A stretch of DNA of 64,000 nt from Salvia splendens. Lineage: Eukaryota; Streptophyta; Magnoliopsida; Lamiales; Lamiaceae. Each line of letters opens with the position of its first letter. The first letter of the stretch is position 1. Shown here one piece after another: positions 10,368 through 62,180 of the stretch. Both the position numbers and the translations under genes were made by a program. The stretch covers positions 2,568,062-2,632,061 of the forward strand of contig NC_056051.1 in NCBI RefSeq assembly GCF_004379255.2, in the 5' to 3' direction. Under the pieces are notes generated by a model that ran no database searches, was not told the origin of the DNA, and was given only the letters and a program-made list of their open reading frames with translations.

Positions 10368-10430
10368 CAAAACATAGTTATAGTGACGTAATCCAGGGTT
10401 AGAGTGATGTTTCTTTGATTTTTGGCTATA

Positions 10431-29411: not shown

Positions 29412-29669
29412 TGTTGTGACGGAATAGAGTAATTGTATAATCGAGATAAACAGAAATGAAAAGAGACATAAAATTTACGTGGTTCACCAGCGTTGTGTTG
29501 GCTAAGTCCACGAGCAGAAAATGGAGAACTGATTATATTTAGATTGTTTTTAGAGTACGAGTTATGCGCCCTACTTCTACATAAATAGGCATACAGATGA
29601 CGGGCTAGGCCCAATAAGACAATTCCGTTCGGCTAACGGCGAACTATACAGATTTAAGGCATACTAACA
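29412..29669 (-). repeat. 5' LTR of the copia element (258 bp)
   Basis: It pairs with 23677-23941 and abuts the primer-binding site at 29397-29408. Its last 70 or so bases (gggctaggcccaataagac to actaaca) recur at 31536-31605. Confidence 0.9.
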
Positions 29670-30605
29670 GAAGTTTCAAGCTAGATAGCGGACTAGTGAA
29701 ATTTTCTGATTTGTGCTCCCTTTGTAAATTGTAGGTGAAAATTGAGGAGGTCCTTGGCCCCGTGAAGTCATGTGTGTGACCTCAGCCATATCCTAATCTT
29801 CAGATTTTTTCTTTTGTTCCCTTTTTGCTTAGATCCTTCGGAATCATTGTCATGTGTTACTAATCGGTCTATTGAGTTTGCAAATGATACTTCTGGAGTA
29901 ATAGCTTGAAGTTTCAGATCGGTTGAGGAATTCTTAGCTAGGAATACTTAGCTAGGGTTTATCCTTGTATCTTTTTTCTAGATTCCGATTGTGTACTCTT
30001 TCTTTTTTGTATTTCGGCTTGTTAACTTTGAGACTTGCCATCTCAGTTAGCAATGTAACAAAGAGATCCCGGTAATTAGTGAACCTTGTTGATTTTATCC
30101 CGGATGGTCAAACAATATACCCACCAAGGGTAGCCGAATAGTACCAAGAGTCTCAAGATAATCAAAATATTGTTGATAATATCTACGGTCCATCCTACGA
30201 CATCCCACTAGAAAATTGAGGGGGTGAGGAATAACCATGAGTTCGAGAGTGAAAACACCAATGCTACATATCAATTAGGGATTAATACGAAATAATAAAT
30301 AATTTGAAGAGAAATAATAAGAGAAGGAAAAGATCTCTGGGGAGAAGAGAACGGCAGTTTCTCTCCTTGAGAGAAAACGTGAGAATGATAAATTTATTTA
30401 ATTCTTCCTTCGTTATAATAAAATACTCTACATATATTTATAATATGTGTGGTACAAAAAGATCCTAAAATACAAAAATAAAACAAATCATAACAGACTA
30501 AATCAAATACAATCCTAACAATTTATGAGAATAAATAATAAAAATAATACAAATTTATGGAGAAAATTGGCTGATTTGAAAAAGATATCCGTAGACCGGG
30601 TATCT
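29670..30605. repeat. Duplicated segment R1
   Basis: The sequence from tttcaagctagatagcggac to gatatccgtagaccggg recurs as R2, split between 31606-32047 and 39926-40625. It is unique to these two places except that 30410-30470 has similarity near 56590-56640. It has no gene. Near 30060 the words gagatcccggtaattagtg and cggatggtcaaac look like LTR or leader sequence of an unidentified retroelement. Confidence 0.8.
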
Positions 30606-31535
30606 TTTTAAAAGATAATTTTTTTTTTGTATTGGTAGAATTGTTTGCCTTATTTAAAAAAATATAGAAATGTCAAGTTGAGGTGACGAGGATGACCACA
30701 ACGTTTGCTCCATTGATAACGAAATAATAGTGGAAATTGTTTTCTTTTGTTTTTTTTAACCTACTCTAAATTTTGTAATCGTTCTCAATACTAATTACTA
30801 AATATACATGGCTAACAATAATTTGGTTGAATTATTATGTTTACTAGTATTACTCAAGAAACTTTACAATATTTTCGTGGAAACATCCTAAATAATCAAT
30901 CTTACATTGTATGCTACATTGCTAACGAACTAACAGTCTGGCAATTGTTTTCGTTTGTTTTTAACCTACACCAAATTTTGTTATTATTTCTCAATACAAA
31001 ATCCAAAATATAAGTGGCTAAAACATTTTGATTGAATTAGTATTAGTCAAGTAACTTTAAGATATTTTGGTGGGATCATACAATTAATAAATACTCCCTC
31101 CGTTCCTCTGTAGCTTAGTTGTATTATTTTTTGGATTGTCCCACTATAGTTGAGTCATTTTTTTTTGGCAAAAAATATTTTACTCTCTCTTACTTTATTC
31201 TCTCTCCTCTCTTCATCTTTCTACCTTTTTTCGTTTCTACTTTATTATCTTTTTCCTTAACTCATTTAAAACAATTTTTCTTAAATCTCGGGCCGAAAAA
31301 AATATCTCTACTACAAAGAGACGGAGAGAGTAGTGAATAACAATTTTATTCAATTAAAATGATGCACTGTACATTTATGTTTTAGCAGCACAAAAATTAA
31401 TCTATACCTGGTTAATTGCTAAAAAAACCACCAACTTAAGTTTTGATTTTAGCAAGTTGCATAACTTGCAATATATTAACATTTTTTCTTATTTGTTGCA
31501 AAACAAACATGTCCAAAAAAATGTAGCAATCATGA
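30606..31535 (+). repeat. Dispersed repeat copy A
   Basis: It shares ordered blocks with copies B (53335-55310) and C (57655-59230). These include ggtagaattgtttgcctta, acgtttgctccattgataac, ttaaaatgatgcactgtac, ccaccaacttaagtttt and aacaaacatgtccaaaaaa. It carries a Stowaway MITE (31094-31330) at the same position as copy C. No coding capacity was seen. Confidence 0.8.
31094..31330. mobile_element. Stowaway-like MITE in repeat copy A
   Basis: It starts CTCCCTCCGTTCC and ends ggacggagagag, flanked by TA (31092-31093, 31331-31332). It is orthologous in position to the MITE at 58659-58899. Confidence 0.85.
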
Positions 31536-32047
31536 CAACTGGCTAGGTCCAATAAGACAATTTCGTTCGGCAAACTATACAGATTCAAGGCATACTAACA
31601 TAAGTTTCAAGCTAGATAGCAGACTAGTGAAATTTTCTGATTTGTGCTCCCTTTGTGACTTGTTGGTGAAGATTGAGGAGGTCCTTGGCCCCGTTCAGTC
31701 GTGTGTGCGACCTCAGCCATATCCTAATCTTCTGATTTTTTTCTTTTGTTCCCTTTTTTGCTTAGATCCTTCGGAATCATTGTCATGTGTTACTAATCGG
31801 TCTATTGAGTTTGCAGATGATACTTCTGGAGTAATAGCTTGAAGTTTCAGATCGGTTGATGAATACTTAGCTAGGGTTTATCCTTGTAACTTTTTACTAG
31901 ATTTCGATTGTGTACTCTTTTTTTTGTATTTCGGCTTGTTGACTTTGAGACTTGCCATCTCAGTTAGCAGTAAAGAGATCCCGGTAATTAGTGAACCTTG
32001 TTGATTTGATCACGGATGGTCAAACAATATACCCACCAATGGGTAGC
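31536..32047. repeat. Copia LTR tail plus left part of duplicated segment R2
   Basis: 31536-31605 matches the last 70 or so bases of the copia LTR at 29600-29669. 31606-32047 matches 29670-30130 of R1 in order. The copy is cut at 32047 by the gypsy insertion and resumes at 39926. Confidence 0.85.
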
Positions 32048-32700
32048 TGATGATCCCGCGAATTTTTGATGGTGATGAATGCTGGTAGAGAATAAAGATC
32101 ACGACACAATGAATTTACGTGGTTCGATTTACTGAGGTAAATCTACGTCCACGGGAAGAAAAGAGGGCAGAGTTGTATTGCTTGATCTGTTTTCTACAGC
32201 TTACAATACAGACTTGCTATTTTATCTTTGATCTCTAGAAAGCGAGAGAGTCTAACCCTATCTATCTGATCTAGGTTCTATTTATACATTGAACCAGATC
32301 GTGGCATGCAGCACCATTTACTAGGTAGTGGATGTCGTGGAGATCGTGGCGATCTTGCATGGGTCCACTATCCTGCATGAGTTAATGACTGCTTGACACC
32401 ACTAAATAGATCGTGGGTGTAGTGGAGGTGGAAATCCTGCATGAGTCCACTATCTCCTAGTTCGGTCGAATACTGAGACCGAACTGCTGAATTATTGCCG
32501 AGCAGCTTTTGCCGATCTGAGAGTAGAGCTTGAAGCCGACCTGAGAGCAGAGTTTGATTGGTTGGCTTTTACCGAGCTGGGGCCGAACTCTTTGGTTGTG
32601 CCGAACTGAACTCTTTAGTCATGCCGGACTGATACTCTTTCTTGGGCTTTAGGCTGATGGGCTTTACTGCTGTTGGGCTTGTTTAGTACGTACTCCATCA
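32048..32700 (-). repeat. 3' LTR of the Tat-type gypsy (653 bp)
   Basis: It appears identical to 39268-39920. It contains the words ccgaactg and gccgaac several times and a TATA-like tctatttata near 32276-32285 on the plus strand. Confidence 0.93.
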
Positions 32701-32787
32701 CTACCCCCCCCGGAAAGCGAAGTGAATTACTTCGGCATTCTGGATAAAGGTACGGGGTAAGTTGATGTTTGTCCTCGGTCTTATGAA

Positions 32788-33005
32788 ATGAACATCTTTG
32801 ACCGGACTCGTCTTTGGTCTGATGAAATAAACATCTTTGACCGGACTCGTCTTTGGTCTGATGAAATAAACATCTTTGACCGGACTCGTCTTTGGTCTGA
32901 TGAAATAAACATCTTTGACCGGACTCGTCTTTGGTTTGATGAAATAAACATCTTTGACCGGACTCGTCTTTGGTCTGATGAAATAAACATCTTTGACCGG
33001 ACTAA
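32788..33005. repeat. 39-bp tandem repeat in the gypsy 3' region
   Basis: About 5.6 near-identical units contain catctttgaccggactcg followed by tctttggtctgatgaaat. The 39-bp length is a multiple of three, so both strands stay open and mimic repetitive proteins. There is no evidence of coding. Confidence 0.93.
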
Positions 33006-33010
33006 GCTTG

Positions 33011-33165
33011 TGTCCTAATTTGGCGAGTTTTATCGCTCGGATCGGACTTTCCGTTGTCCTAATTTGGGGATCGGACTTTCCCTTGTCCTAATTCGGCGAG
33101 TTTTATCGCGTGGATCGGACTTTCCCTTGTCCTAATTCAGGCAAGTTTTATCGCGAGAATTGGAC
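33011..33165. repeat. About 45-bp tandem repeat in the gypsy 3' region
   Basis: Roughly three diverged units contain cggactttcccttgtcctaa followed by ggcgagttttatcgcg. It adjoins the 39-bp array on one side and the 89-bp array on the other. Confidence 0.7.
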
Positions 33166-33170
33166 TTTCG

Positions 33171-33625
33171 TTGCAGTTCGTTTCAGACGAAGTGCTTGAT
33201 TCTTAAGCTGAATTGTGGTCTTGTATCCTCTTTAGAAGCTTGGACTTCACAATCGTTGGCTTATTGCAGTTCGTTTCAGACGAACTGCTTGTTTAAGCTG
33301 AATTGTGGTCTTGTATCCTCTTTAGAAGCTTTGACTTCACAATCGTTGGCTTATTGCAGCTCGTTTCAGACGAACTGCTTGTTTAAGCTGAATTGTGGCC
33401 TTGTATCTTCTTTAGAAGCTTTGACTCACAATCGTTGGCTTGTTGCAGCTCGTTTCAGACGAACTGCTTGTTTAAGCTGAATTGTGGCCTTGTATCTTCT
33501 TTAGAAGCTTTGACTCACAATCGTTGGCTTGTTGCAGCTCGTTTCAGACGAACTGCTTGTTTAAGCTGAATTGTGGTCTTGTATCCTCTTTAGAAGCTTG
33601 GACTCACAATCGTTGGCTTGTATAT
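33171..33625. repeat. 89- to 93-bp tandem repeat in the gypsy 3' region
   Basis: Units start at ttgcag positions 33171, 33264, 33354, 33443 and 33532, giving periods of 93, 90, 89 and 89. Each contains cgtttcagacgaactgcttg and cacaatcgttggcttg. The last unit runs to about 33625. Confidence 0.9.
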
Positions 33626-33811: not shown

Positions 33812-36800
33812 TTACAAATGGAACTTCTTGAGGTTGGAAATGTGCCATGTTCGGGGTACCTGTTCTCCTGACATGTGAGCCAATTTGTAAGACCCTTTGC
33901 CGAGGACTTCTGACACCTGATATGGACCTTCCCATGTGGGTTCGAGCTTGCCCAGCTTTTCTGCTCGGCTTACTTCGTTGTTTCTCAAGACGAGATCTCC
34001 CACTTGAAATTGCAGCTTCTTCACCCTTTGGTTATAATACCGGGCTACTTGCTCCTTGTACTTGGCTGCTTTTATGCATGCCAATTTTCTTCTTTCTTCG
34101 GCAAGATCTAGCTCGGCTCTCAGTCCGTCGTCATTCATTTCTGCTGAGAAATTTAGAGTTCGGGGACTGGGTACGCCGATCTCCACCGGAATTACGGCTT
34201 CAGTGCCGTACACCAGACTGTACGGAGTTTCACCGTTGGAGGTTGTGGGTGTAGTTCGGTAGGACCATAGGACTTGAGGGAGATTTTCTACCCATTGTCC
34301 TTTGGCTTGTTCTAACCGAGCTTTTAACCCTTTCACCAGGATACGATTTGTTACCTCCGTTTGTCCGTTTGCTTGTGGATGAGAGACCGAAGTGAACCCC
34401 TGTTGAATATTCAGCTCTTGGCACCAATTCTTGAACGTCTTGTCGGTGAACTGAGTCCCGTTATCCGAGATGAGGATGTGGGGTATGCCAAATCGGCACA
34501 CTATGTTCTTCCAGACGAAATCCAATGCCTTCGAGCTCGTTATCGTAGCTAATGGTTCAGCTTCCACCCACTTCGTAAAGTAGTCCACGGCAACGATTAG
34601 GAATTTCATTTGCCGAGGAGCTTGAGGAAGTGGTCCCACTATGTCTATGCCCCATTGCATGAAAGGCCAAGGGCTTTGCATAGTGGATAGATCGGTCTGC
34701 GGCATCCTTGGGATATTTGCATGGATTTGGCACTTCGGGCATGTCTTGACGAGCTGCACTGCTTCTTGTACCAAGGTTGGCCAATAATATCCCCATCTTA
34801 GAACTTTTTTAGCTAAAGCTCTAGCTCCGATGTGGCTGCCGCACGATCCTTCATGAACTTCTCTGAGGATGTAGTCCGTCTCTTCTGGTCCTACGCACCG
34901 CAATAGCGGCTGGAGGTAAGACTTTCTAAAGAGGACTCCTTCATGAAGTTCGTACCGAAGTGCTCGGCACGTGATCTTCCGAGCTTCTCTCTTATCCTCG
35001 GGCAATTGTCCTTGATCCAGATACTGCAAGATCGGCGTCATCCAGTTCGGCGAGCTGGATACTGAATGTACCTCGGCTTCATCAATGCTTCGATGCATTA
35101 ATTCTTCCGCCTTTGAGCTCGGATCTGAGGCCAACTTACTTAAGGTATCTGCTCGGCTATTTTCCGCTCTGGGAACGCGGATTATCCGAAAATAGGAGAA
35201 ACTTCGGCTGATGCTTTGCGCTTTGTCCAAATACTTCTTCATTCTCTCGTCACGAGCTTCACTTGTACCCAACATGTGATTTACTATGACTTGTGAATCA
35301 CAATGGACTTTGAGAGATTTGACGAGCAGACTTTGCGCTAACTGGAGTCCGGCCAGGAGGGCTTCGTATTCGGCTTCGTTATTAGTAGTTGGGAATAAGA
35401 AACGAAGTGAATAAGTTACCTCGTGTCCGTCGGGAGCGATAAGTAAAATACCAGCTCCACTTCCCATCTTGTTTGAAGCTCCATCTACGAAACCGCTCCA
35501 GCAGTCTGGCGGCTCTACTTCGGATTCCAAGGGCTGTGCTAGTTCGGCATTGGCAGAATTTTTCTGTTCGGCAATGACAGGGATTGCTTGATCGAACTTG
35601 GCCTCTGCAAGAAAATCTGCCAAGGCTTGTCCCTTGATTGCTTTCCGAGGTAGGTACTCGATTGAGTGTTCTCCCAGCTCTATGGCCCATTTGGCGATTC
35701 TGCCTGATGCTTCTGGCTTGGTCAAAACTTGCCGAAGAGGCAGATCGGTTAAGACGCATACCTTGTGAGCATAGAAGTATGGCCGCAGTCTCCTTGCTGT
35801 ATTTACTAACGCCAGAGCAATTTTTTCCAGAGGTTGATACCTTGTTTCTGGACCTCTTAATGCTCGGCTTGTAAAGTAGATGGGAAACTGCTTTAGGCCT
35901 TCTTCTCGTACAAGCACCGCGCTGATGGTTTGATCTGATGCCGCTAAGTATAAGAATATTACTTCGGCTTCGGTTGGAGCAGAGAGAATAGGAAGCTCGG
36001 CTAGATAACTTTTGAGCTCGTCAAAGGCCTTTTTCTGCTCGGCTCCCCACTCGAACTTTGGTGCCTTTTTCAACACCTTGAAGAACGGCAGTTGCTTTTC
36101 GGCTGCTTGGGAAAGGAATCGATTCAGTGCGGCTAGACATCCGGTTAGCCTTTGCACGTCATGTATGGACTTCGGCATTGCCATGTTCTGAACGACTTGA
36201 ACTTTTGAGGGGTTTGCCTTGAGTCCGTCCTTTGAAACCCAACAACCCAGAAACTTTCCCGAATCTACCAAAAAGGTACACTTTTGGGGATTAAGTTTGA
36301 GGTTGGCTTTCTTGAGCACGTTGAGAGTGGACTTGAGGTTGTGCTCGTACTCCGAAGTGCTTTTGCTTTTGACGACTATATCGTCAACATACACTTCGAC
36401 CTCCTTTCCGATTAGGTGCCGAAAAAGCTTGTCTACCATCCTTTGATAAGTGGCTCCGGCATTCTTTAAACCGAATGGCATCTTTTTATAAGCGAAAATG
36501 CCGAAATCGGTAATGAAAGCTGTTTTCGGAGCGTCACTCTCATCCATCAACACTTGGTGATATCCTTTGTATAAATCAAGAAAACAGAAAATTTCGAAGC
36601 CGATCAAAGCTTCTACTTTTTTATCTATATTCGGAAGGGGATAGCAATCTTTAGGACAGTGCTTGTTTAGATCGGTAAAATCTATGCACATCCGCCATCC
36701 TCCTTCTTTTTTCTTGATCATCATAGGATTGGCCACCCAAGAAGGATATTTCACCTCGAATAGTACATCCGCTTTTAGTAATTGGCGGACTTCGTCATGG

Positions 36801-37075
36801 ATGACTTGGCTTCTTTCTGCCGCAAAGAGTCTTTGCTTCTGTTTTACTGGCCGGATTGAAGGATCAATATTTAACCGATGAGTGATTACCTCGGGGGGCA
36901 CTCCGGTCATGTCCAACGGAGACCATGCAAAGACATCTTTGTACTCCTTGAGGAGCTGAATGGTCTTTTCCCGGAGTAGAGGCGTTCCTGCGAAGCCAAT
37001 CTTGACCGTTCTGGATGGATCATCTTCGTATAACTGAACGGTCATTGAGTTCGGCTCTGAAGTGACTTCGGTCAT
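33812..37075 (-). CDS. Tat-type gypsy pol: RT, RNase H, archaeal-type RNase H, integrase
   Basis: The intact frame gives 1,087 residues from the Met at 37075, and is open back to the UAG at 37109-37111. RT covers about residues 100-280 with WRMCIDFTDLNKHCPKDCYP and the catalytic YVDD at 229-232. The ordinary gypsy RNase H (about 375-490) has YLAAS where the family usually has an Asp in LDAS, so it may be inactive. A second, archaeal-type RNase H starts at GFVDGASNKMGSGAGIL (Asp 531) with TNNEAEYEALLAGL. Integrase has an HHCC zinc region (about 740-785) and catalytic Asp 811 (GIDIVGPLP), Asp 871 (ISDNGTQF) and Glu 907 (NGQTEV). There is no start signal ahead of 37075, and the frame equals that of gag-protease, so expression probably needs UAG readthrough. 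Confidence 0.95.
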   Translation of the reverse strand: MTEVTSEPNSMTVQLYEDDPSRTVKIGFAGTPLLREKTIQLLKEYKDVFAWSPLDMTGVPPEVITHRLNIDPSIRPVKQKQRLFAAERSQVIHDEVRQLLKADVLFEVKYPSWVANPMMIKKKEGGWRMCIDFTDLNKHCPKDCYPLPNIDKKVEALIGFEIFCFLDLYKGYHQVLMDESDAPKTAFITDFGIFAYKKMPFGLKNAGATYQRMVDKLFRHLIGKEVEVYVDDIVVKSKSTSEYEHNLKSTLNVLKKANLKLNPQKCTFLVDSGKFLGCWVSKDGLKANPSKVQVVQNMAMPKSIHDVQRLTGCLAALNRFLSQAAEKQLPFFKVLKKAPKFEWGAEQKKAFDELKSYLAELPILSAPTEAEVIFLYLAASDQTISAVLVREEGLKQFPIYFTSRALRGPETRYQPLEKIALALVNTARRLRPYFYAHKVCVLTDLPLRQVLTKPEASGRIAKWAIELGEHSIEYLPRKAIKGQALADFLAEAKFDQAIPVIAEQKNSANAELAQPLESEVEPPDCWSGFVDGASNKMGSGAGILLIAPDGHEVTYSLRFLFPTTNNEAEYEALLAGLQLAQSLLVKSLKVHCDSQVIVNHMLGTSEARDERMKKYLDKAQSISRSFSYFRIIRVPRAENSRADTLSKLASDPSSKAEELMHRSIDEAEVHSVSSSPNWMTPILQYLDQGQLPEDKREARKITCRALRYELHEGVLFRKSYLQPLLRCVGPEETDYILREVHEGSCGSHIGARALAKKVLRWGYYWPTLVQEAVQLVKTCPKCQIHANIPRMPQTDLSTMQSPWPFMQWGIDIVGPLPQAPRQMKFLIVAVDYFTKWVEAEPLATITSSKALDFVWKNIVCRFGIPHILISDNGTQFTDKTFKNWCQELNIQQGFTSVSHPQANGQTEVTNRILVKGLKARLEQAKGQWVENLPQVLWSYRTTPTTSNGETPYSLVYGTEAVIPVEIGVPSPRTLNFSAEMNDDGLRAELDLAEERRKLACIKAAKYKEQVARYYNQRVKKLQFQVGDLVLRNNEVSRAEKLGKLEPTWEGPYQVSEVLGKGSYKLAHMSGEQVPRTWHISNLKKFHL

Positions 37076-37102
37076 CTCGCTTGCCTTTGACTCCGGTTGC
37101 TG

Positions 37103-37111
37103 TGATTGCTA
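37103..37111 (-). promoter_or_regulatory. Candidate stop-codon readthrough signal, UAG-CAA-UCA
   Basis: On the minus strand the gag-protease frame ends GCA TAG and is followed in the same frame by CAA TCA. This matches the UAG-CARYYA readthrough context known from plant RNA viruses. The frame then stays open through eleven codons to the pol Met at 37075 and on to 33812. The stop sits exactly between protease and RT. Confidence 0.65.
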
Positions 37112-39190
37112 TGCTTGATGGTGCCGAACTGATTGCTCGGCACTTTTAAGAGCAATCTGCAGACATTCTTTTGCTCTCTTTTGATCACCTCGGATGACCG
37201 CTATCCCACCTTTAGTGGGGATCTTGATGGTGAGGTGATAAGTAGAGCAAACGGCCCGAACTGTGTTGAGCCAGTCTCTCCCCAGGATGATGTTGTACGG
37301 GGACCGAGCTTTCACCACAAAGAACTCGATCATCGTATTGGAGCTTGTAGGCGCTTTTCCCACCGTGATCGGAAGGCTGATAATACCTTCAGGGCGGGTG
37401 TCCTCCTGGGCGAAACTTTTCAGAGGAAGTGGAGCCGGACTGAGCCGAGCTGGATCCACTTCCATTTTATCGAAACATTCTTTAAAAAGAATGCTGACTG
37501 ACGCTCCTGTATCCACAAATACTCTATGGATCAATTTGTTTGCCACTCCGGCTTGAATGACAATAGCGTCTTGGTGAGGAGAGATGGCTGGGACGGGATC
37601 GGCATCTGAAAATGTAATCACTTCGTCTTTCTTCAGCCTTTTATGTGTTGGCTCCTCTTGATTGGAACCTCTGCGTTCTGCTTTTAGGGACGACTTAGTC
37701 TTCCCGGCAGGGAGAGCATCAATAGTCTGGATTACTCCATCATATTGCGGCTCGTCGTCGTCTTCGGGATCCTCATGCCTTTTCGGATCCTGAGGATTGC
37801 AGTTCGCACCTCTCTGCCTTTTGTTCTTTTTCGGCTGCTTGCTTTGGTATTTTTTTAACGTTCCTGTTTTCACAAGAACATCAATACCTGCAGCCAAATT
37901 TCGGCACTCCTCGGTATCGTGACCGTGGGTTTGATGGAAGGAGCAATATTGATCCTGAGGTCGCCGCGCGGCTGATTTCGTCATCCGCTTTGGTCTTTCG
38001 AACATATCGGAATGTAGTTCGAAAATTTCCGCTCTTGACTTGTTCAGCGGTACGAACTGAGCAGGCGGCTTCTCGGGATTGAGACGGGGTCCCAATCGGT
38101 CTTGCACCGGAGCCCTTTGAATTCTTTCAAATGGAGTCCGGCGAGGATGCCCCTGATCGCTATGATCGGGCTTCCTTCTGTCTCCTCGGGACGATGAGCT
38201 GTCTAACGACCGTTTGCGACGGTCTGCCTCATCGGCCCGGGAGTACTGGTCCACAATGTCCCACATTTCCTGAGCTGTCTGCGGACCGCACTCAACGAGC
38301 TTCCTGTAGAGAGCTCCGGGCAGGATTCCATTTTGGAATGCCGAGATGACAAGCAGATCGTTGAGATCGTCTACTTGCAGGCATTCCTTGTGGAATCTTG
38401 TCATAAAGTCGCTGATTTTTTCGTCGCGACCTTGACGAATGGAAAGCAGCTGAGCCGAAGTGATTCGGACTTCCGCTTTCTGAAAGAACCTCCTATGGAA
38501 TGCATCCATTAGATCTCGGTAAGATCTAATGCTGCCTTGGGGGAGGCTATCGAACCATCTTCTTGCGTTCCCGATGAGCAGCTCGGGAAACAGCTTGCAC
38601 ATGTGGACCTCGTTGAGACCCTGGTTCGCCATGTTATATTGATAGCGTCCCAAGAAATCATGAGGATCCACGAGTCCGTCATAGGTTATCGACGGAGTTC
38701 GGTAGTTCCGCGGCAAAGGAGTTCGGGTGATATCGTCCGAGAACGGAGTCTTTAATGCTCCGTACATGGCGAACCCGACCTCTCTTCGGTACGGAGGAGA
38801 TGGAGTTCTCCTGTGGTTCCGGTACCGAGGAGGACCAGGAACATGTCGGGGTTGAGGATTCTTTCTCCTGGAAGACACGTCACTACTGCGGTAGTGACTT
38901 TCATGTCTGGATGAGGAGGGAGAATCCGCCGTTGTCTTCTCCGGCTGTTGGCTCTTCTGCAGGAAGGTTAAGAACTCCTCCTGCTTCTCGGCCAAAAACA
39001 GCTTGACAGCTTCATTTAAATCGGGCTGCTGGGAAGACTCGGTGCGATCTCTCCTGGAGTGGCTTGTTCCTTCTTCGTGAGAACCGGAGGTAGATGTCTC
39101 CCGAGGCCGTTTTTCAGACCTGCGAGCTGGACTAGCTTCCTCACGGTTATCACGAACGGTATTACGGGTAGTGTGTGATCTGGTATGCAT
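37109..39190 (-). CDS. Tat-type gypsy gag-protease
   Basis: The frame is 693 residues from the Met at 39190 (MHTRSHTTRN). It is open further upstream into the LTR, but this ATG is the first one past the primer-binding site. The N-terminal 160 residues are charged and Ser/Arg-rich. The retrotransposon gag domain lies at about 165-280 (NARRWFDSLPQGSIRSYRDL). A Cys/His knuckle variant CSFHQTHGHDTEEC follows. A lysine-rich region and an acidic stretch come next. The retropepsin starts near residue 556 with VFVDTGASVSIL, and NIILGRDWL closes its fold. Gag would form the particle and the protease would cut the polyprotein. The frame ends at UAG, in phase with pol. No internal damage was seen. Confidence 0.93.
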   Translation of the reverse strand: MHTRSHTTRNTVRDNREEASPARRSEKRPRETSTSGSHEEGTSHSRRDRTESSQQPDLNEAVKLFLAEKQEEFLTFLQKSQQPEKTTADSPSSSRHESHYRSSDVSSRRKNPQPRHVPGPPRYRNHRRTPSPPYRREVGFAMYGALKTPFSDDITRTPLPRNYRTPSITYDGLVDPHDFLGRYQYNMANQGLNEVHMCKLFPELLIGNARRWFDSLPQGSIRSYRDLMDAFHRRFFQKAEVRITSAQLLSIRQGRDEKISDFMTRFHKECLQVDDLNDLLVISAFQNGILPGALYRKLVECGPQTAQEMWDIVDQYSRADEADRRKRSLDSSSSRGDRRKPDHSDQGHPRRTPFERIQRAPVQDRLGPRLNPEKPPAQFVPLNKSRAEIFELHSDMFERPKRMTKSAARRPQDQYCSFHQTHGHDTEECRNLAAGIDVLVKTGTLKKYQSKQPKKNKRQRGANCNPQDPKRHEDPEDDDEPQYDGVIQTIDALPAGKTKSSLKAERRGSNQEEPTHKRLKKDEVITFSDADPVPAISPHQDAIVIQAGVANKLIHRVFVDTGASVSILFKECFDKMEVDPARLSPAPLPLKSFAQEDTRPEGIISLPITVGKAPTSSNTMIEFFVVKARSPYNIILGRDWLNTVRAVCSTYHLTIKIPTKGGIAVIRGDQKRAKECLQIALKSAEQSVRHHQA

Positions 39191-39248: not shown

Positions 39249-39266
39249 TTCCCACAGACGGCGCCA
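39249..39266 (-). other. Primer-binding site of the Tat-type gypsy
   Basis: TGGCGCCGTCTGTGGGAA on the minus strand begins one base after the 5' LTR end. The TGGCGCC start is shared by many plant gypsy primer sites. The exact tRNA was not determined. Confidence 0.8.
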
Positions 39267-39267
39267 G

Positions 39268-39920
39268 TGATGATCCCGCGAATTTTTGATGGTGATGAAT
39301 GCTGGTAGAGAATAAAGATCACGACACAATGAATTTACGTGGTTCGATTTACTGAGGTAAATCTACGTCCACGGGAAGAAAAGAGGGCAGAGTTGTATTG
39401 CTTGATCTGTTTTCTACAGCTTACAATACAGACTTGCTATTTTATCTTTGATCTCTAGAAAGCGAGAGAGTCTAACCCTATCTATCTGATCTAGGTTCTA
39501 TTTATACATTGAACCAGATCGTGGCATGCAGCACCATTTACTAGGTAGTGGATGTCGTGGAGATCGTGGCGATCTTGCATGGGTCCACTATCCTGCATGA
39601 GTTAATGACTGCTTGACACCACTAAATAGATCGTGGGTGTAGTGGAGGTGGAAATCCTGCATGAGTCCACTATCTCCTAGTTCGGTCGAATACTGAGACC
39701 GAACTGCTGAATTATTGCCGAGCAGCTTTTGCCGATCTGAGAGTAGAGCTTGAAGCCGACCTGAGAGCAGAGTTTGATTGGTTGGCTTTTACCGAGCTGG
39801 GGCCGAACTCTTTGGTTGTGCCGAACTGAACTCTTTAGTCATGCCGGACTGATACTCTTTCTTGGGCTTTAGGCTGATGGGCTTTACTGCTGTTGGGCTT
39901 GTTTAGTACGTACTCCATCA
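39268..39920 (-). repeat. 5' LTR of the Tat-type gypsy (653 bp)
   Basis: It pairs with 32048-32700 and has the same length and apparently the same sequence. It is followed on the plus strand by the target duplication gtagc and the rest of segment R2. Confidence 0.93.
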
Positions 39921-39925
39921 GTAGC

Positions 39926-40625
39926 CGAATAGTACCAAGAGTCTCAAGATAATCAAAATATTGTTGAGAATATCTATGGTCCATCCTACTACATCTCACT
40001 AGAAAATTGAGGGGGCCAGGAATAACCATGAGTTCGAGAGTGAAAACACCAATGATACATATCAATTAGGGATTAATACGAAATAAAAAATAATTTGAAG
40101 AGAAATAATAAGAGAAGGAAAAGATCTCTAGGGAGAAGAGAACGGCAGTTTCTCTCCTTGAGAGAAAACGTGAGAATGATAAATTTATTTAATTCTTCAT
40201 TCTTCATTATAATAAAATACTCTAAATATATGTGTGGTACAAAAAATCCTAAAATACAAAAAATAAATCAAATCATAACAAACTAAATCAAATACAATCC
40301 TAACAATCTATGAGAATAAATAATAAAAATAATACAAATTTATGGAGAAAATTGGATGATTTGAAAATCCTAAAATACAAAAAATAAATCAAATCATAAC
40401 AAACTAAATCAAATACAATCCTAACCATCTATGAGAACAAATAATAAAAATAATACAAATTTATGGAGAAAATTGGATGATTTGAAAATCCTAAAATACA
40501 AAAAATAAATCAAATCATAACAAACTAAATCAAATACAATCCTAACAATCTATGAGAATAAATAATAAAAATAATACAAATTTATGGAGAAAATTGGATG
40601 ATTTGAAAAAGATATCCGTATACCG
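39926..40625. repeat. Right part of duplicated segment R2, with a 121-bp triplication
   Basis: It matches R1 (30132-30600) in order. At 40246-40608 a 121-bp unit (atcctaaaatacaaaaaata to gatttgaaa) is present three times with starts at 40246, 40367 and 40488. R1 has it only once. No gene is present. Confidence 0.85.
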
Positions 40626-42806
40626 GTATAAGAATAACTTATATTGGGACATTTATTATGCATAGAAATTTGAGGCCGATGACTGATGATAGCGGACCAT
40701 TGACATTTTCTAACATTGTGAAAAAGATATCACACCACATGATTTTCTCAACCGATGCAATTAACCTAAGAACACATGGTCGGAAAGTAGAGGCAATTAA
40801 TTTTTAAACTATCTTGGCCTATATTTGGCCGCCTTTATCGAATAGCTACTTCCTTCAAACAACATGGTAATTACTCCTATAATCATTTCCTACAGATGTT
40901 TCTATCGTAAATTGTATTTCTATGGTGGATACAAAAACACAAAATATCACTTATCCAGTTCACGGGATAATACATTCTCAAATATAATAATATAATTATT
41001 ATCATTTGTAATTAATAATTCATTAAAAATTTTATTATTATTATTCTTATTATTCTTTATAAATAAAATAATAATAAGTATATTTTTAGTTTGGTGTTTA
41101 AATCAAATATAATATTTAAAATTTTGATATTTTCTAAACACAGAAAAGTAAAATTATGGATGAATGATGGATATTATAATTTATGATTTTTTTATTTTTT
41201 TAAATTTGTAGTAGGTTTTTTTCTCTTAAATTTGAACTACTTCAAGTTTGTATCAAATTCGAATTACAAGTTTGTACTTCTAAAAGTTTGTAGTTAATTT
41301 CCTTAAAAAATAATAAAATAAATAACATAAAAATCCAAAATCGGGACTGGATGTCCGAGCCGGGTATCCGGATACCTGAAATCATTTTCAGACCGGGTAT
41401 TAGATTTTAGAAAATTCGGGATCGGGTACCTGAAATTTGCGGATGGGATATCAGCGAATACCCGATTTGACAGGCCTAGTCGGAACCCAAGTTAAAAAAA
41501 GGAGTTATGCATGTTTTCAAAATTAGAAAACAACCTATAAATAAACATAAGTGATTACTTTAATTTAATTTCAAGTGATTGGTTTCTTTTTTGCTGTTAT
41601 TTTGAGAATAAACTAATAAATAGTTTAAGTGGAGAGAAGGTAAAGTAAAAGAAAGAAAATGTAGAAAAGAACTGCATCTATATTATTCTTTCTCTTACTT
41701 TGCTTTCGCTCTACTTTAATTATTTATTCATTTTTGCCAAACGCTTGAAAAAAATAGTCAATCACTTGAGATGAGACGGATGAAGTATTGCAGGCAGGAT
41801 GTGGTTCCGTATGTCGGATTGAGAATCTATACCCATTCATCTTCTTGCTTTGTGTTTATTCAGTGATTTTTTTCCCATTTTATAGTTTTGTTGTAGACAT
41901 TTAATTGATATGCCCCTTCTTTATAGTTGATCTTATATATTTCGATTCCCTAACTTGAAAGAACGTCGATAGTTTATCCAAAAAAAATTTCCTTTGTTTC
42001 GTTTAGATAATTAAAGAATATATTTGGTCGTTTAAGAGGAGTTTCAAATTTTGGTTTTGTACTTAGAATAACATTATGGCACCAAATAATAATAATTTGT
42101 CTTTTCTTTGCAAAGAGGAGAAATTAAAAGCTAAAAGAAATAAAATACATCTCAAGTACATAAGGTAATTAAAGTAATTTACCTTAGGCTGCATCTTTAT
42201 GGAGGTACAAAAGAAATCAAATTACAAAAATATAATACACTTGGGCCTTATAAAAGAAAGTAAAGATTTGTAGTCTTGGGCCTAGTAAAAACATAAGAAA
42301 GTTTTAAACAATTCCTCAAGCCCATTTTGTTTTGGAGAATCAAATAAATCTTGCGTGCGATTCCATTAGCAATCAATTCGTCGCAACTATTTGCAATTAA
42401 TATTGGACAATCAATTCAGAAAACAATTTCAATAAATCCCAATGGTATATAGTACTTATTTACGTTTCATTCTCTTCCACAATCTCCACACTTCCAAATG
42501 ATCAGAGAACAGAGAATTAGAAGGTAAAGTGAAGCAAAAGGGGCTGCAATTACACTAGATAGGTAATCACTAACTTGAATTTCTATGTGCATGTACAACA
42601 CTTCGCAACAACATAAATAGATGGATACATAGTTCTCGACTGAATTTTTGGGCCATCGTGTTGCTAGAGGGCTGGAGTAATTTTGGGCCAGCAAGAATAA
42701 AAGTAAACGAAATGGATGGGCCGAATACCTAAAGAGAGATATGGGGATTATATCTATAATTTGAAACAGAAGAAGAAGAAACCAACATACTTTACCGATG
42801 CTTTAG
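40626..42806. other. Intergenic AT-rich DNA
   Basis: 40660-40860 matches the upstream region of the small peptide gene and 23060-23310. 41340-41470 has cgggtatccggatacc repeats of MITE style. The rest (to 42806) shows no gene or element I can support. A 75-codon minus frame at 42467-42694 has no motif. Confidence 0.45.
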
Positions 42807-43492: not shown

Positions 43493-44180
43493 TGTTAAGG
43501 GTAATCCCCTTAACGCGTAGTTATCGGCGACGAGAAGTCGACGATGGAGGATCAAGTTCGGACGTCGCAGGCTCTCCCGGCGATCTGCTCCGATTCTAGG
43601 GTTTGCAATTTGCGGTAAAAACGTAAAGAATAAGGAATTGGGAAGATTGTGATATTATTGCTTAGTGAAAAATCATAATGTATCTCCCTTTTATAGCTAA
43701 GGACCCTAGATGATTCGACTCTCTTTTGCGATCCGGGAAAGAATCACCAAGAAAACCCGGAAAGGGGCTTATTGGGCCCGACTCAATTAATAACAAAATT
43801 ATCCATAATGTAAAAGGAGATTAACCAAAAATAAATACTACTAATTACTACTAATCTAATGCAAACGTAAATTCTCGGACGTCTCTGCCTTGCTGCTCTA
43901 ATGAGACACAAAGTCTCCATAGCGCGTGATCGGTTTCGGTTGTCTCCGGGGTCTTCCACTGGCCGCCGGCACCTCAGCGGTCGGCGCCTCCTCTTCCGTC
44001 ACCTCACTCTCTGCCACCTTATTCACACGCGTCTCCTCTTCCGTCACCTCACTCTCTGCCACCTTATTCACACGCGTCTCCTCTTCCATCACCTCACTCT
44101 CTGCCGCCCCATTCACACTCACCGGCTCGCCTCTCTCGGTTGGAGCTTCCCTACTAGGAATGGAGGTTATCTCCGTATCA
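43493..44180 (-). repeat. 3' LTR of the chromovirus, encoding the polyprotein C-terminal tail
   Basis: It contains three tandem 45-bp units (about 43991-44125) encoding repeats of KVAESEVTEEETRVN on the minus strand. The frame ends RPRRQPKPITRYGDFVSH at 43898. The other LTR has two such units. Confidence 0.9.
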
Positions 44181-44883
44181 ACTCCCCCCCGATAAGAGCC
44201 TCCTTGTCCACAAGGAGGTCCGGAAAGTGTCTCTCGATCAGCGCCAGAGGCTCCCATGTTGGTGCCGCCCCTCCGTCATCGTTCCATTCCAACTGACCCT
44301 CTTCTTGAGGAGCATTGTCGCACAACACCGTTCGCCTAGCCAGGAGTCTCGTTGGCCTTGCAATGGGCAGACCCCGAGAAAAGACCTCCGGAAACGCTGT
44401 TGGCACAGCCTGGTTTCCTTCCACAAATGGCCGTAGCAAACTCACATGGAACACATTGTGGATACGGCTACTATCCGGCAACTTCAATCTATACGCCACC
44501 TCCCCGATTCGTTCGAGGACTTCAAAGGGTCCATAGAAACGGCGACCCAGTTTAGCCGACGCTGGACGGGCCACGGAGTGTTGACGATACTGTTGCAGCT
44601 TGAGAAGCACCCGGTCCCCGACTTTAAACTCCAAATGTCGCCTATGGCGATTCGCCGTCGCACGCATGCGCTGCTGGGCCTTCTCCAAATTCCGACGCAG
44701 CGCCACTATCAAATCCCCCCGTTCGCGAATATCGCGAGCTACATCCGGCGGCGTGGCCGCTGATGGTGGTGCCGCGATGAGAGCCGGCGGCTCCCGGCCG
44801 TACAAGGCGTGAAATGGGGATGTGCCAAGGCCTTCATGGTGGAAACAGTTCAGGGCTAACTCCGCCCAAGGCAACAAATTCAC
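44167..44883 (-). pseudogene. Chromovirus integrase end and chromodomain-like C-terminus
   Basis: This is the continuation of pol after a one-base frameshift near 44888-44900. It reads LLPWAELALNCFHHEGLGTSPFHALYGREP, the end of the integrase catalytic fold. KVGDRVLLKLQQYR and the GPFEVLERIGEVAYRLKLP domain follow. A chromodomain-like segment comes last, around WEPLALIERHFPDL. It terminates just inside the LTR at 44167. A second frame (44257 to 43898) would carry the tail if one more G were read in the G7 tract at 44184-44190. Chromodomains direct integration to particular chromatin. Confidence 0.8.
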
Positions 44884-47800
44884 CCATTCGATGGTCTATC
44901 CGCGACAAACGATCGCAGATACTGCTCCACCCCTCGATTTCTTACTTCCGTCTGGCCATCCGATTGAGGGTGGTAAGCCGTTGAAAATTGTTGTTTAGTA
45001 CCGCTTAGCTTCAACATGTGTTTCCATACGTCACTCAAAAACAAGGGGTCCCGGTCGGACACTAGCGTCTTCGGAAATCCATGGTGCTTAATCACAGTAT
45101 CGATGAACAACCGTGCCACCCTCCAAGCATCACAACGTGCCGGCAGTGGTGCAAAGTGAGCATACTTGGACAGCCGGTCCACTGCGACTAGAATCGTAGT
45201 GTAGCCCCGCGATTGAGGCAAGCACGTGATGAAATCCATAGAAACGTTCTCCCACACCTGGGACGGAATCGGCAATGGCTGAAGCAGACCCGCCGGTTTC
45301 TGGGTCGAGTATTTCGACGTTTGGCATTCAAAGCAAGCCTCGACAAATCGCTTAACGTCCTTGCGCATGCGACGCCAAAAGAACGAGGTCGCCAATCTGC
45401 GGAAAGTTCGGTCGATGCCCGGGTGACCCGCCATCGGTGTGCTGTGATGCTTGTAAAGTAATGCTTCCTTCGCCGCCGAAGCTAGGCCGACTACAATTCT
45501 CCGGTCAAAGTAAAGCATCCCCTCTACCACCGAAAAACTCGGGCTGACCGTCTTAGCCTTCACGGCCTTATGGAGTTCCAGTAATTCCTCCAATGACCCG
45601 TTCTCCCTGCGCAAGATCTGCATAATATCCGGGATTGGGTGACTCACAGCCGTCAGCAACCTTCCGTCGGCCTCGGGATCGCCAATATCAACATCCCGTC
45701 GCGATAGGGCATCCGCTGCTTTGTTAGACGCCCCTGTCTTGTACTCAATACGAAATTTGTATCCCATCAGTTTCCGCACAAACAACTGTTGATCCGGGGT
45801 CTGAATCACTTGTTGGAGTAGTTCCTTGAGGCTCTTCTGGTCACTACGAATCACAAATTCTCGTCCCAACAAGTACTGTCTCCATTTCTGAACGGCTTCG
45901 ACAATCGCGTACAGCTCCTTATGATAGGTTGAAGTCACGCGACGTCGTGGACCTAGCTTCTTGCTGAAAAAAGCCAGTGGATGGCCGTCTTGTAGTAGAA
46001 CCGCGCCCACTCCAAAATCCGAGGCATCGGTCTCCAAGTAGAAGGTCTTGGAGAAGTCCGGTAGGCGTAGCACCGGAGCTGACGTCATAGCGATCTTGAG
46101 TGCCTCAAAGCTCTCCGTGGCACTGGGTGTCCATTCAAATGCATCCTTCTTCAATAACTCCGTCAACGGTGCGGCAATGGATGCATACCGCGCGATAAAG
46201 CGCCTATAATACCCCGTGAGGCCCAAGAACCCGCGCAGCTGTTTGACTGTGACCGGGGTCGGCCAGGCCACCATTGCCTCTATTTTCCCCGGGTCGGCGC
46301 GCAACTGGCCTTCCTCTATCAAATGCCCCAAATAATCTACAGTCGCACAACAGAAAGTGCATTTCGACAATTTCACAAAAAAGCTATGTGAATGAAGGAT
46401 AGAGAGCACCTCGTGTAAATGCTCTGCGTGGCTCTCCATCGAAGGACTGTAGATTAGAATGTCGTCAAAGAACACAATGACTGACTGCCGAAGAAGATGC
46501 CGAAATATGTCGTTCATTGCTGCCTGAAATGTCGACGGGGCGTTGGTTAAACCAAACGGCATCACTAGGAACTCAAAATGTCCGTCGTGTGTTCTGAACG
46601 CCGTCTTAAACACATCCTCCGAGTGCATCCGAATCTGGTGATACCCTGCTCGGAGATCCAACTTAGTAAAGACCCTTGCTGCCCCAAGCTCATCAAATAA
46701 CTCGTCCGTGGTTGGAATGGGAAAGTGGTCCGGGACAGTAGCTGCGTTCAACGCCCTATAATCGATACAGAAGCGAAACGAGCCATCATTCTTCCTGATC
46801 AAAAGCACTGGTGATGAGAACGGGCTATGGCTCCTCCTGATAATCCCCGTGTCCAACATCTCCTTCACCTGCCGTTCAATTTCCGCCTTCTGAAAGTACG
46901 GGTATCGATAAGGCCGAACACTCACGGGCTTCGTGTTTGGGAGTAAATGAATTATGTGATCAAACGGCCGGTTTGGTGGCATGCCCGACGGAAGGGTGAA
47001 GACCGTCCGGTTCGTCTCTAAGACCGTTAACACCGTATGTGGGATGCCGGTGGGGAACACGACCTCGTCCGTGTCGGCCGGTGACGACCCAGGTAGCTGG
47101 ACCAACTCGAAAGCACGTGCCTCAGTGCTATGCAATAAGAGTAATGAGGCCGCCCGGAAGGACACCTCACGCGCCTCAGTGGGACCCACCTTGAGACACA
47201 CCGGAACACCTCCTCGTGTGAACTCTATCGTACCATCCACAAAGTCATTCGTCACTCGTCGCAAGGAGCGCAGCCACTCCATGCCCAGTACCACGTCAAG
47301 GCCATGTATCGGCAATATATGCAAGGTTACTGTAAAGGACTCCTTCTGAATGTGGAGCACTGTGGCTACACTAGCAAATGAACACACCAACGAGGCGCTA
47401 TTGCCCACATAAACCCTGAAAGGTCGCACCGCGGTTAGTGGCAATTTTAGTTTCTCGGCCACCCGTGGGTGCAGAAAATCGTGGGTACTTCCCGTATCCA
47501 CCAACACTTGAACGGGCTCGTTCCCGATATGGCCCTCAAGCAACAGCGAATTCGGACCTGGGCGACCCCCCAATGCATATAGGTGTGACAAATCAGTAGT
47601 CAGCAATTCGTCCGGCGGGGAATCCCCCTCCATCTCCTCCGGTTCCACCAGGTCCTCGCCCATGTATGCCAGGAAAGTCTTGTTACAGACGTGCCCCGGA
47701 ACCCACTTCTCAGGGCAATACCAACACAGCCCTTTTCTCGTCCGTTCCGCCTTTTCTGCTGCACTAAGCCGGATGACCTGGACGCCGGCGTAGTCGCTGC

Positions 47801-48377
47801 CCCGCTGAAGGCCAGGGCGAGTTGATGGTGCTGCCGGCGGCTGAGGCTGCTGCTGCTGGCCCCCAACGGAACCCAATTGGGGTAGCGTGTGCTGCTGAGG
47901 TTGCTGTCCCCCGCGAGGTTGCCACGGTCGGCGTTGGGCCGAATGATGGGCCGGTGGTCGTTCTACCGCAGCATCGAACTCTACTGCCAGGGCCATGGCG
48001 GCCGCCACCGATGGAGGGTACTGAAATTTAACCTGGTTCCGCACCGGCTGCATTAACCCCTCAACGTACAGTGTTACCAAACGCCGCTCGGGCACCCCCC
48101 GAACTCGATTCAACATACTATCAAACTCCGAATTATAATCGGCCAACGACCCGGTCTGAAACAGCTTAGCCAACACCCCAAAATGGTCCACAAAACACTT
48201 AGGATCGAAGCGACGGCGGACATCCTCAAAAAACTCGCCCCACCTCGCCGTCGGGTTCCCCTCGCGATAATTAAACACCCATTCCGCGACGGGGGGTTCG
48301 AACAACATCACCGCATAGTGTAAGCGTTGTTCCTCCGGTAGGGAAAAATGATCAAAATAGAATTGAATCCTCGAGAT
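44880..48377 (-). pseudogene. Chromovirus gag end, protease, RT, RNase H and integrase
   Basis: The long open frame (1,143 residues from 48311, open back to a stop at 48378-48380) starts in gag (ARWGEFFEDVRRRF). It then has a zinc knuckle CWYCPEKWVPGHVC (residues 196-209) and protease VQVLVDTGSTHDFL (Asp 272). RT has FRFCIDYRALN and the catalytic FFDD at 614-617. RNase H follows with FYLETDASDFGVGAVL. Integrase has a zinc region at GHPGIDRTFRRL...CFECQ, catalytic Asp in VSMDF, Asp in VSDRDPLF and Glu in GQTEVRN. The frame ends prematurely at 44880 through a one-base shift. All catalytic motifs seen are intact, so this copy was active recently. Confidence 0.92.
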
Positions 48378-49065
48378 TCAACTCGTAACGTTCGACCCGT
48401 CGAAGCGAGGAGGTTTCATCGTGACCCCCGGCGGCTTCTCCGCGATCTGCTGCCGTTGACCCCGAGGTCTCCCACGACGGTCGACTGCCATACGCCTGAA
48501 ATTCGGGAAATCTGTTCCCCCATGGATCCGACGGTGGGGGGGCACGCGTCGTAAGCGGCATGTCCCACGCCGGCAACTGCTGTGGACGCGACGGCTCTGG
48601 GGCGTCCCACGAAGACTGCTGGAACCAAGACGTGGGGGGAAGGTCCCACCCACCACGCTGTTGCTGGGTAAAATCCGGTCGGAACGACCCAGACCCTGAA
48701 TTAGGGTTTGGCCGAAAGCTATCAAAACGACCCGCAGACCCTCCCGCCGCCGGGATTGATGGAGTGGAGGCGGCTATTGTGGAGAGCGGTGGGTGAAACG
48801 GCAGGGACACCCCCAATGATCGGGTGAACGGGCGACTGTGCGGCGGCTCCGGATCCGGTCGCTGCGTGCGGCGCGACGACGGAAGGCTATCATACGCATC
48901 CATACGGGACTCCAACCTCGCCATACCCGCCAACATGTGCTCGAACATTACTTTAATCGGGTCTAGGCCGGGCGAATCCTCGATTGGGGTTAGAACTGGA
49001 TCGGTTACCACCGGCAAGGAGCACAAGGGTTCTGTGCGCCCTTCGAACGTGTTTGAATCAGCCAT
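48352..49065 (-). pseudogene. Chromovirus gag N-terminus, disrupted
   Basis: The frame starts at the Met 49065 (MADSNTFEGRTEPLCSLP), nine bases beyond the primer-binding site. It holds a Pro/Ser-rich region. Somewhere around 48430-48520 the family-like reading moves to another frame (QIAEKPPGVTMKPPRFDGSN), and a TGA at 48378-48380 follows where related gags have Trp. Beyond it the same frame continues into 48377-44880. One frameshift and one nonsense change thus separate gag from pol here. Confidence 0.75.
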
Positions 49066-49089
49066 GAGATCAACAATGAAAGCACCAGT

Positions 49090-49732
49090 TGTTAAGGGTA
49101 ATCCCCTTAACGCGTAGTTATCGGCGACGAGAAGTCGACGATGGAGGATCAAGTTCGGACGTCGCAGGCTCTCCCGGCGATCTGCTCCGATTCTAGGGTT
49201 TGCAATTTGCGGTAAAAACGTAAAGAATAAGGAATTGGGAAGATTGTGATATTATTGCTTAGTGAAAAATCATAATGTATCTCCCTTTTATAGCTAAGGA
49301 CCCTAGATGATTCGACTCTCTTTTGCGATCCGGGAAAGAATCACCAAGAAAACCCGGAAAGGGGCTTATTGGGCCCGACTCAATTAATAACAAAATTATC
49401 CATAATGTAAAAGGAGATTAACCAAAAATAAATACTACTAATTACTACTAATCTAATGCAAACGTAAATTCTCGGACGTCTCTGCCTTGCTGCTCTAATG
49501 AGACACAAAGTCTCCATAGCGCGTGATCGGTTTCGGTTGTCTCCGGGGTCTACCACTGGCCGCCGGCACCTCAGCGGTCGGCGCCTCCTCTTCCGTCACC
49601 TCACTCTCTGCCACCTTATTCACACGCGTCTCCTCTTCCATCACCTCACTCTCTGCCGCCCCATTCACACTCACCGGCTCGCCTCTCTCGGCTGGAGCTT
49701 CCCTACTAGGAATGGAGGTTATCTCCGTATCA
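49090..49732 (-). repeat. 5' LTR of the chromovirus (643 bp)
   Basis: It pairs with 43493-44180 and lacks one 45-bp unit. The primer-binding site is two bases away at 49074-49087. Confidence 0.93.
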
Positions 49733-62159: not shown

Positions 62160-62180
62160 ATGAAACAGAGCAGAAAATCA

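What the first reader, a model, noticed from the sequence alone, without database searches (positions are those of the whole stretch)
37075..37150. In-frame UAG-CAA-UCA between gag-protease and pol of an intact Tat-type gypsy: probable stop readthrough
Gag-protease (39190-37109) and pol (open to 33812) are in the same frame and separated by a single UAG at 37111-37109. The next six bases are CAA UCA, fitting the CARYYA readthrough context. The eleven codons before the first pol Met stay open. Both frames are otherwise undamaged and the two LTRs look identical, so a random nonsense mutation at exactly this border in this context is unlikely. Ogre elements of the same lineage place an intron at the protease/RT border, so this may be an alternative way to control the gag:pol ratio.
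Basis: partly seen in the sequence, partly recalled or inferred. Interest (0 to 1): 0.8.

Follow-up and report, generated by a model that had tools for sequence, protein, structure and literature searches.

The report
Programmed leaky stop in plant retrotransposon
A very abundant plant jumping element keeps one UAG stop codon, in the sequence setting that makes tobacco mosaic virus stops leaky, between its gag-protease and its polymerase genes, which suggests that it makes polymerase by letting a few ribosomes read through the stop.

Summary
Confirmed. On the minus strand an intact Tat-type Ty3/gypsy element (LTRs 653/653 identical, 5-bp target duplication) has gag-protease and pol in one frame, split by a single UAG followed by CAA UCA, a perfect CARYYA. 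With exact flanks, 659 of 662 genomic sites carry UAG; none has a border codon beginning with A, C or G. A foreign-protein search not tied to the border DNA scored 113 loci (of 12,433 first-look candidates): the 96 that align across the border each hold exactly one stop, a UAG; none of the 113 lacks the border. pol after the UAG is under purifying selection (pN/pS 0.07-0.08), although its first 25 residues look relaxed. So pol is made despite the stop. Tobamovirus-type UAG readthrough is the best mechanism; reinitiation at the pol AUG 33 nt downstream is the main rival. A hairpin just upstream exceeds chance but is weaker in a second subfamily. No expression data were available. Known relatives: MLV gag-pol, SIRE1 pol-env, rice RIRE2 (cited elsewhere as a readthrough candidate); the fungal Tca2 and VdLTRE5 gag/pol stops lack CARYYA.

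The parts
39268..39920 (-). 5' LTR (TG...CA), 653 bp
   Evidence: identical 653/653 to the 3' LTR
32048..32700 (-). 3' LTR, 653 bp
39921..39925 (.). target site duplication GCTAC, 5' side
32043..32047 (.). target site duplication GCTAC, 3' side
39249..39267 (-). expected primer binding site, directly after the 5' LTR (tRNA not assigned)
   Evidence: position and sequence only
37112..39190 (-). gag-protease frame, 693 codons
   Evidence: Pfam Retrotrans_gag E 8e-17; gag-asp_proteas E 4e-4, 21.5 bits against a curated cut-off of 28.2; pN/pS of variants in 3 or more copies 0.16 for its last 500 codons
37121..37143 (-). inner hairpin GUGCCGAGC/GUUCGGCAC, ends 9 nt before the UAG
   Evidence: z -6.79 for 39 nt; z -4.16 against synonymous shuffles; weaker in subfamily B
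37104..37157 (-). predicted outer stem GAUUGC...GCAAUC that pairs the G of UAG and most of the readthrough context with an upstream arm
37109..37111 (-). border UAG stop
   Evidence: 659 of 662 exact-flank sites; 86 of 86 aligned copies; 96 of 96 border-spanning protein matches hold 1 TAG and no other stop
37103..37108 (-). CAA UCA, CARYYA (TMV type) readthrough context
   Evidence: no variation in 86 copies, 50 of which were chosen by an exact match that includes it; also in 20 of 20 loci fetched by the protein search
37076..37108 (-). eleven linking codons
   Evidence: 33 nt long, no stop, in 86 of 86 copies
33812..37075 (-). pol: RT, RNase H, additional RNase H, integrase; first AUG 33 nt after the UAG
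   Evidence: RVT_1, RT_RNaseH, RVT_3, Integrase_H2C2, rve; pN/pS 0.07 for variants in 3 or more copies, first 487 codons
32732..33621 (-). two tandem-repeat arrays (39-bp and about 89-bp units) between pol and 3' LTR

Best explanation
The UAG is a fixed, functional part of a high-copy Tat-lineage retrotransposon. Most ribosomes stop at it and make Gag-protease; a minority decode UAG in the tobamovirus-type context UAG-CAA-UCA (in the tobacco mosaic virus context by tRNA-Tyr) and go on through the eleven-codon linker into RT-RNase H-integrase, giving a Gag-Pro-Pol polyprotein at a set low ratio. Shown: near-fixation of UAG with CARYYA, open frame on both sides, purifying selection on both sides, no border-less genomic copies in the sample. 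Inferred: that pol is reached by readthrough, the efficiency, the inserted amino acid, and any help from the upstream hairpin.
For: (1) UAG in 659 of 662 sites with exact 21-nt flanks, 0 with a codon starting A, C or G; a looser 30-nt pattern with free border codon and up to 3 mismatches hits 3,164 sites, reversed control 0; the 100 rows listed, all zero-mismatch, carry UAG. (2) Search with a foreign (Erythranthe) protein slice across the border: 113 loci scored of 12,433 first-look candidates; 96 align across the border and each has exactly one stop, TAG; the other 17 match in two pieces with the same total span of 1,017 bp, border codon not shown there; 20 of 20 loci fetched read UAGCAAUCA. 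(3) 28 of 36 copies have 999 codons around the border with no frameshift and no stop but the UAG; 18 further copies (of 20 fetched; L104 and L118 left out) from two subfamilies have only the UAG as in-frame stop, 2 of the 18 with a frame-shifting indel. (4) Variants in 3 or more copies: 35 N/64 S upstream (pN/pS 0.16), 14 N/56 S downstream (0.07). (5) UAGCAAUCA unchanged in 86 of 86 copies while 32 of 180 upstream and 34 of 135 pol-start columns vary (see caveat). (6) In plants CAA UYA after UAG is the TMV/BNYVV readthrough class (PMC2754532, passages).
Against: No RNA or protein data. The pol AUG is kept in 85 of 86 copies, with G at -3, so a separate start is possible. In the 66-copy set the linker (2 N/1 S shared) and the first 25 pol residues (4 N/1 S shared, 11 N/0 S single) look relaxed. 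94 of the 120 best pol homologues carry protease and RT in one predicted protein (gene models may splice over stops), so a stop is not needed in the lineage. Pattern counts are conditioned on conserved flanks, and 50 of the 86 aligned copies were chosen by an exact match that includes CAATCA (not the stop codon); the protein search is not tied to border DNA but keeps only the best-scoring loci. A count of variation at a neighbouring neutral site, meant as a control, did not complete.
Confidence: 0.8

Rival explanations
1. Termination-reinitiation or internal initiation: Pol is a separate protein started at the AUG 33 nt after the UAG; the hairpin and UAG serve that.
For: AUG kept in 85 of 86 copies, G at -3; of 26 pol-only homologues 14 begin 9 to 50 residues before the same RT point, ours 25 before it; strong structure just upstream; relaxed linker and pol N-terminus in the 66-copy set.
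Against: It does not explain why pol is in frame with gag-protease, why the linker is 33 nt in 86 of 86 copies, or why a perfect CARYYA follows the UAG. Fixed linker differences between subfamilies are synonymous only, 2 of 2, a small number.
Confidence: 0.12
2. Splicing, as in Ogre: an intron over the border removes the UAG from part of the transcripts.
For: Ogre elements of the same clade do this (PMC6317226, passages).
Against: No extra sequence at the border: PR-to-RT linker 68 residues including the stop, against a median of 58 (range -11 to 167) in 94 relatives. 112 of the 113 loci span 1,017 bp and one 1,083 bp; reverse-transcribed spliced RNA would leave shorter copies, though these might score lower and be missed.
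Confidence: 0.03
3. A nonsense mutation (CAG to UAG by methylation decay in a Gln-rich linker) that spread with a master copy complemented in trans.
For: The linker is Gln-rich and relatives with one predicted gag-pol protein exist.
Against: pol after the stop is under purifying selection; subfamily B, about 7% different from the window copy, shares UAG and context; 659 of 662.
Confidence: 0.03
4. Ribosomal bypass (stop hopping) driven by the upstream hairpin.
For: Hairpin ends 9 nt before the UAG; CAA codons lie on both sides of the stop.
Against: The hairpin is weaker in subfamily B, without compensatory change; hopping was looked for and not found in the TMV context (PMC2754532, passages).
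Confidence: 0.02

Closest known systems
Tobacco mosaic virus replicase UAG-CAA-UYA readthrough (type I)
   Same: UAG followed by CAA UYA, A just before the UAG, plant host (PMC2754532, passages)
   Different: a retrotransposon gag-protease/pol border; codon before the stop is GCA, not CAA; hairpin upstream
RIRE2 (rice, Retand/Tat) as a readthrough candidate
   Same: same clade; its paper is cited for gypsy-type readthrough candidates from rice (PMC2754532, passages; RIRE2 placed in Retand, PMC6317226, passages)
   Different: the original paper (Ohtsubo 1999) was not seen; its signal and conservation are unknown to me
SIRE1 pol/env stop suppression (soybean, Ty1/copia Sirevirus)
   Same: plant LTR element, two genes split only by a stop that is suppressed (PMC2829016, passages)
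   Different: controls env-like, not pol; other superfamily
Tca2 (Candida) and VdLTRE5 (Verticillium) gag/pol stops
   Same: LTR elements with gag and pol split by a stop and a proposed readthrough (Tca2: PMC2194720, listing; VdLTRE5: PMC3441728, passages)
   Different: UGA, Ty1/copia, fungal, and without CARYYA according to PMC3441728
Murine leukemia virus gag-pol UAG readthrough
   Same: Pol in the gag frame behind a UAG (PMC5009743, passages)
   Different: uses a pseudoknot; the stop lies before protease (recalled), here after protease
Ogre gag-pro/RT intron
   Same: same clade, same border (PMC6317226, passages)
   Different: a spliced region averaging 274 bp between the ORFs; here none

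Membership tests
Tat clade of plant Ty3/gypsy | additional RNase H domain; in angiosperms between RNase H and integrase | tested here: met
   RT_RNaseH 373-468, RVT_3 530-648, Integrase_H2C2 730-785 of pol; feature from PMC6317226
[quoted passage not shown]
   one in-frame UAG, no intervening region; border kept in 113 of 113 scored loci; transcripts not examined
Retand | pol-3'LTR region of 2.9-6.6 kb | tested here: not met
   1,111 bp, from the pol stop and the LTR end; figure from PMC11963269
Retand | antisense ORF with TRP28 domain after pol (nearly all clusters) | tested here: inconclusive
   no ORF of 150 aa or more there on either strand; shorter ORFs and the domain were not searched
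Retand | position in the RT phylogeny | not tested
   no tree was built
Type I (TMV) readthrough signal | UAG followed by CARYYA | tested here: met
   constant in 86 of 86 copies
Type I (TMV) readthrough signal | measurable readthrough in plant cells | not testable with these tools
   needs a reporter assay
MLV-type readthrough | structure directly 3' of the stop | tested here: inconclusive
   122 nt from the UAG on, z -2.76, but z -1.21 against synonymous shuffles; no pseudoknot search was made

The most novel reading that the evidence does not exclude
Tat-lineage elements with separate gag-pro and pol ORFs generally use a tobamovirus-type leaky UAG, helped by a hairpin just upstream, to set the Gag-Pro to Pol ratio, where their relative Ogre uses an intron: two solutions to one problem at the same border.
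Probability: 0.3. Interest if true: 0.75.

Novelty: new variant of a known kind. Interest (0 to 1): 0.62.

Why it matters
How plant Ty3/gypsy elements set the Gag to Pol ratio is, outside Ogre, little tested as far as I know. Here one family with hundreds to thousands of copies keeps a virus-like leaky stop with its context, which makes the question directly testable with a short reporter. It also warns that annotation that discards elements with an in-frame stop may drop working families.

Tried and rejected
Scans of viral contigs with the first 500 residues of pol and with a pol alignment gave no relative. The genome-contig scan gave 13 RT loci, 25-39% identical; the best, L001 in a Streptomyces assembly, is one open frame that I take for plant contamination and did not use. 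The gag-protease search of the protein database gave 2 hits and its C-terminal part none. Of the pol hits 3,990 passed the cut and only the best 120 were listed and used. My recollection that the conserved gag-end stem-loop of Gao 2003 was in a Ty3/gypsy group does not fit a review, which puts it in Sireviruses (PMC5009743, passage); the Gao and Havecker papers were not held. The idea that the hairpin is strictly conserved was dropped: subfamily B weakens it with no compensatory change, and the window copy alone of 66 has a T at 37151 in the outer stem. A foreign-protein search meant to find sister Tat families gave only this family among the 20 loci fetched. Not done: a tree, the border codon among the roughly 2,500 sites with 1-3 flank mismatches, a count of protease against RT sites, and a neutral-site control (searches did not complete).
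Full report
The observation. On the minus strand the sequence reads ...CAT CAA GCA UAG CAA TCA CAG CAA CCG..., with UAG at 37111-37109. Gag-protease is open from ATG 39190, pol from ATG 37075 to 33812, same frame. Pfam places gag (above its cut-off), a weak aspartyl protease match (below its cut-off), RT, RNase H, a second RNase H (RVT_3) and integrase in that order; the second RNase H before integrase is the mark of angiosperm Tat elements (PMC6317226, passages). The LTRs are identical over 653 bp and flanked by GCTAC, so this is a young, complete insertion.

Is it chance? Only 5 of 1,791 codons in the frame are followed by an in-frame CARYYA. Apart from the UAG itself, no codon that is one transition away from a stop is followed by CARYYA. 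That left open a CAG-to-UAG decay in a glutamine-rich linker, a likely nonsense change in methylated plant DNA (general knowledge), so other copies were needed.

Copies in the host genome. The window lies in an assembly of 806 Mb. The 40 DNA matches scored for the 301-bp border, the window's among them, all read UAGCAAUCA. A 30-nt pattern with the border codon left free and up to 3 mismatches hits 3,164 sites, control 0. With exact 21-nt flanks, 662 sites have a codon beginning with T, 659 of them UAG, and none begins with another base. These counts are conditioned on conserved flanks. A sample not tied to the border DNA is the search with a foreign Erythranthe protein slice over the protease-RT border: 12,433 first-look candidates, 113 loci scored, so the best-scoring only; 96 match straight across and each holds exactly one stop, TAG; in the other 17 the two halves match separately and the border codon is not shown. 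The span is 1,017 bp in 112 loci and 1,083 bp in one. The 20 loci fetched from that search all read UAGCAAUCA; 19 were sorted into two groups by identity to the window, and L104 carries a short duplication after the border.

Selection. Of 38 longer loci, 36 cover 999 codons around the border, and 28 of these 36 have no frameshift and no stop but the UAG. Variants in three or more copies are 35 nonsynonymous to 64 synonymous upstream (pN/pS 0.16) and 14 to 56 downstream (0.07). In the 66-copy set of 498 codons, variants in two or more copies are 24 to 59 overall, with pN/pS 0.10 for the upstream 200 codons and 0.08 for the RT part. Fixed differences between the two subfamilies are 21 N/33 S upstream, 12 N/25 S in pol, 0 N/2 S in the linker. 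So the part after the stop has been working while the family spread. In 86 distinct copies, the window's included, the linker is always 33 nt with no stop, the nine bases UAGCAAUCA never vary, and the pol AUG is kept in 85; 50 of the 86 were chosen by an exact match that includes CAATCA but leaves the stop codon free. Against a strict reading, within-family linker variants are 2 N/1 S shared, and the first 25 residues of pol look relaxed (4 N/1 S shared, 11 N/0 S single), so the linker test is weak.

RNA structure. The 60 nt from 37162 to 37103 fold at z -6.45, second of 444 windows in the coding region; the 120 nt from 37222 rank first of 220. The result depends on the window: the 60 nt that end just before the stop give -2.33 and the 60 nt from the stop on -0.58. 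An inner 9-bp hairpin ends 9 nt before the UAG, and an outer stem pairs GAUUGC with GCAAUC, which includes the G of the stop and most of the context. Against synonymous shuffles the excess holds for codons around the border (z -4.35, 1 of 1,000) but not for a longer stretch (z -1.73, 53 of 1,000) or the 3' side (z -1.21). In subfamily B the inner stem loses pairs with no compensation. I regard it as a possible modulator, not a proven part.

Relatives. Of the 120 best pol homologues, 94 carry protease and RT in one predicted protein (gene models may splice, so an uninterrupted frame is not proven) and 26 are pol only, 14 of them starting 9 to 50 residues before the same RT point. This fits the report that 59% of Retand clusters have one ORF and the rest two (PMC11963269, passages). 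No close homologue was among the hits listed: the best pol hit is 55% identical.

Mechanism. A leaky UAG of TMV type is best supported: context, frame, near-fixation, selection after the stop, no border-less copies in the sample. Reinitiation at the AUG is the serious rival. Splicing and trans-complemented nonsense are unlikely. Placing protease before the stop means that protease would be made at Gag level, unlike MLV, where the stop precedes protease (recalled).

What is known. A 2009 paper says that experimentally verified readthrough in plants concerned viral RNAs, with rice gypsy elements (citing the RIRE2 paper) and computed genes as candidates (PMC2754532, passages). SIRE1 is said to suppress a stop between pol and env (PMC2829016, passages). 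[quoted passage not shown] A fungal paper calls a gag/pol split by a stop very rare and notes that VdLTRE5 and Tca2 lack CARYYA (PMC3441728, passages). Nine literature searches, in open papers only, listed no report that I recognised of a CARYYA gag-pol border in a plant retrotransposon; most listed papers were seen as listings only and subscription papers not at all.

Noticed in passing
window 43493-49735: A second Ty3/gypsy-like element with LTR-like repeats 43493-44183 and 49090-49735 (93% identical) and its coding region split into two overlapping frames near 44880.
   Followed up: no
window 29600-32050 and 39921-40626: The element sits among other repeats: sequence next to its 5' end (39921-40367) recurs at 30130-30582, and 29600-30137 recurs at 31538-32050.
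   Followed up: no
window 6062-7575 and 9800-10368: Tandem copies with 356-bp spacing at over 99% identity, and a related inverted stretch 2 kb away.
   Followed up: no
window 32732-33043 and 33170-33621: Two tandem-repeat arrays (39-bp and about 89-bp units) in a short 1.1-kb pol-3'LTR region that has no ORF of 150 aa or more, unlike the Retand pattern.
   Followed up: partly
L104 1750-2166; L118 1750-3642: One copy has a short tandem duplication just after the border; another locus holds two border regions 1.5 kb apart.
   Followed up: partly
protein P0121 (database record labelled Escherichia coli): A gag protein 48% identical to this one is filed under E. coli on a 2.2-kb contig, most likely plant contamination.
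   Followed up: no
window 19136-22674 and 62160-62954: Leucine-rich-repeat receptor-like gene pieces; 21561-22699 and 62156-63149 are related copies in opposite orientation.
   Followed up: no
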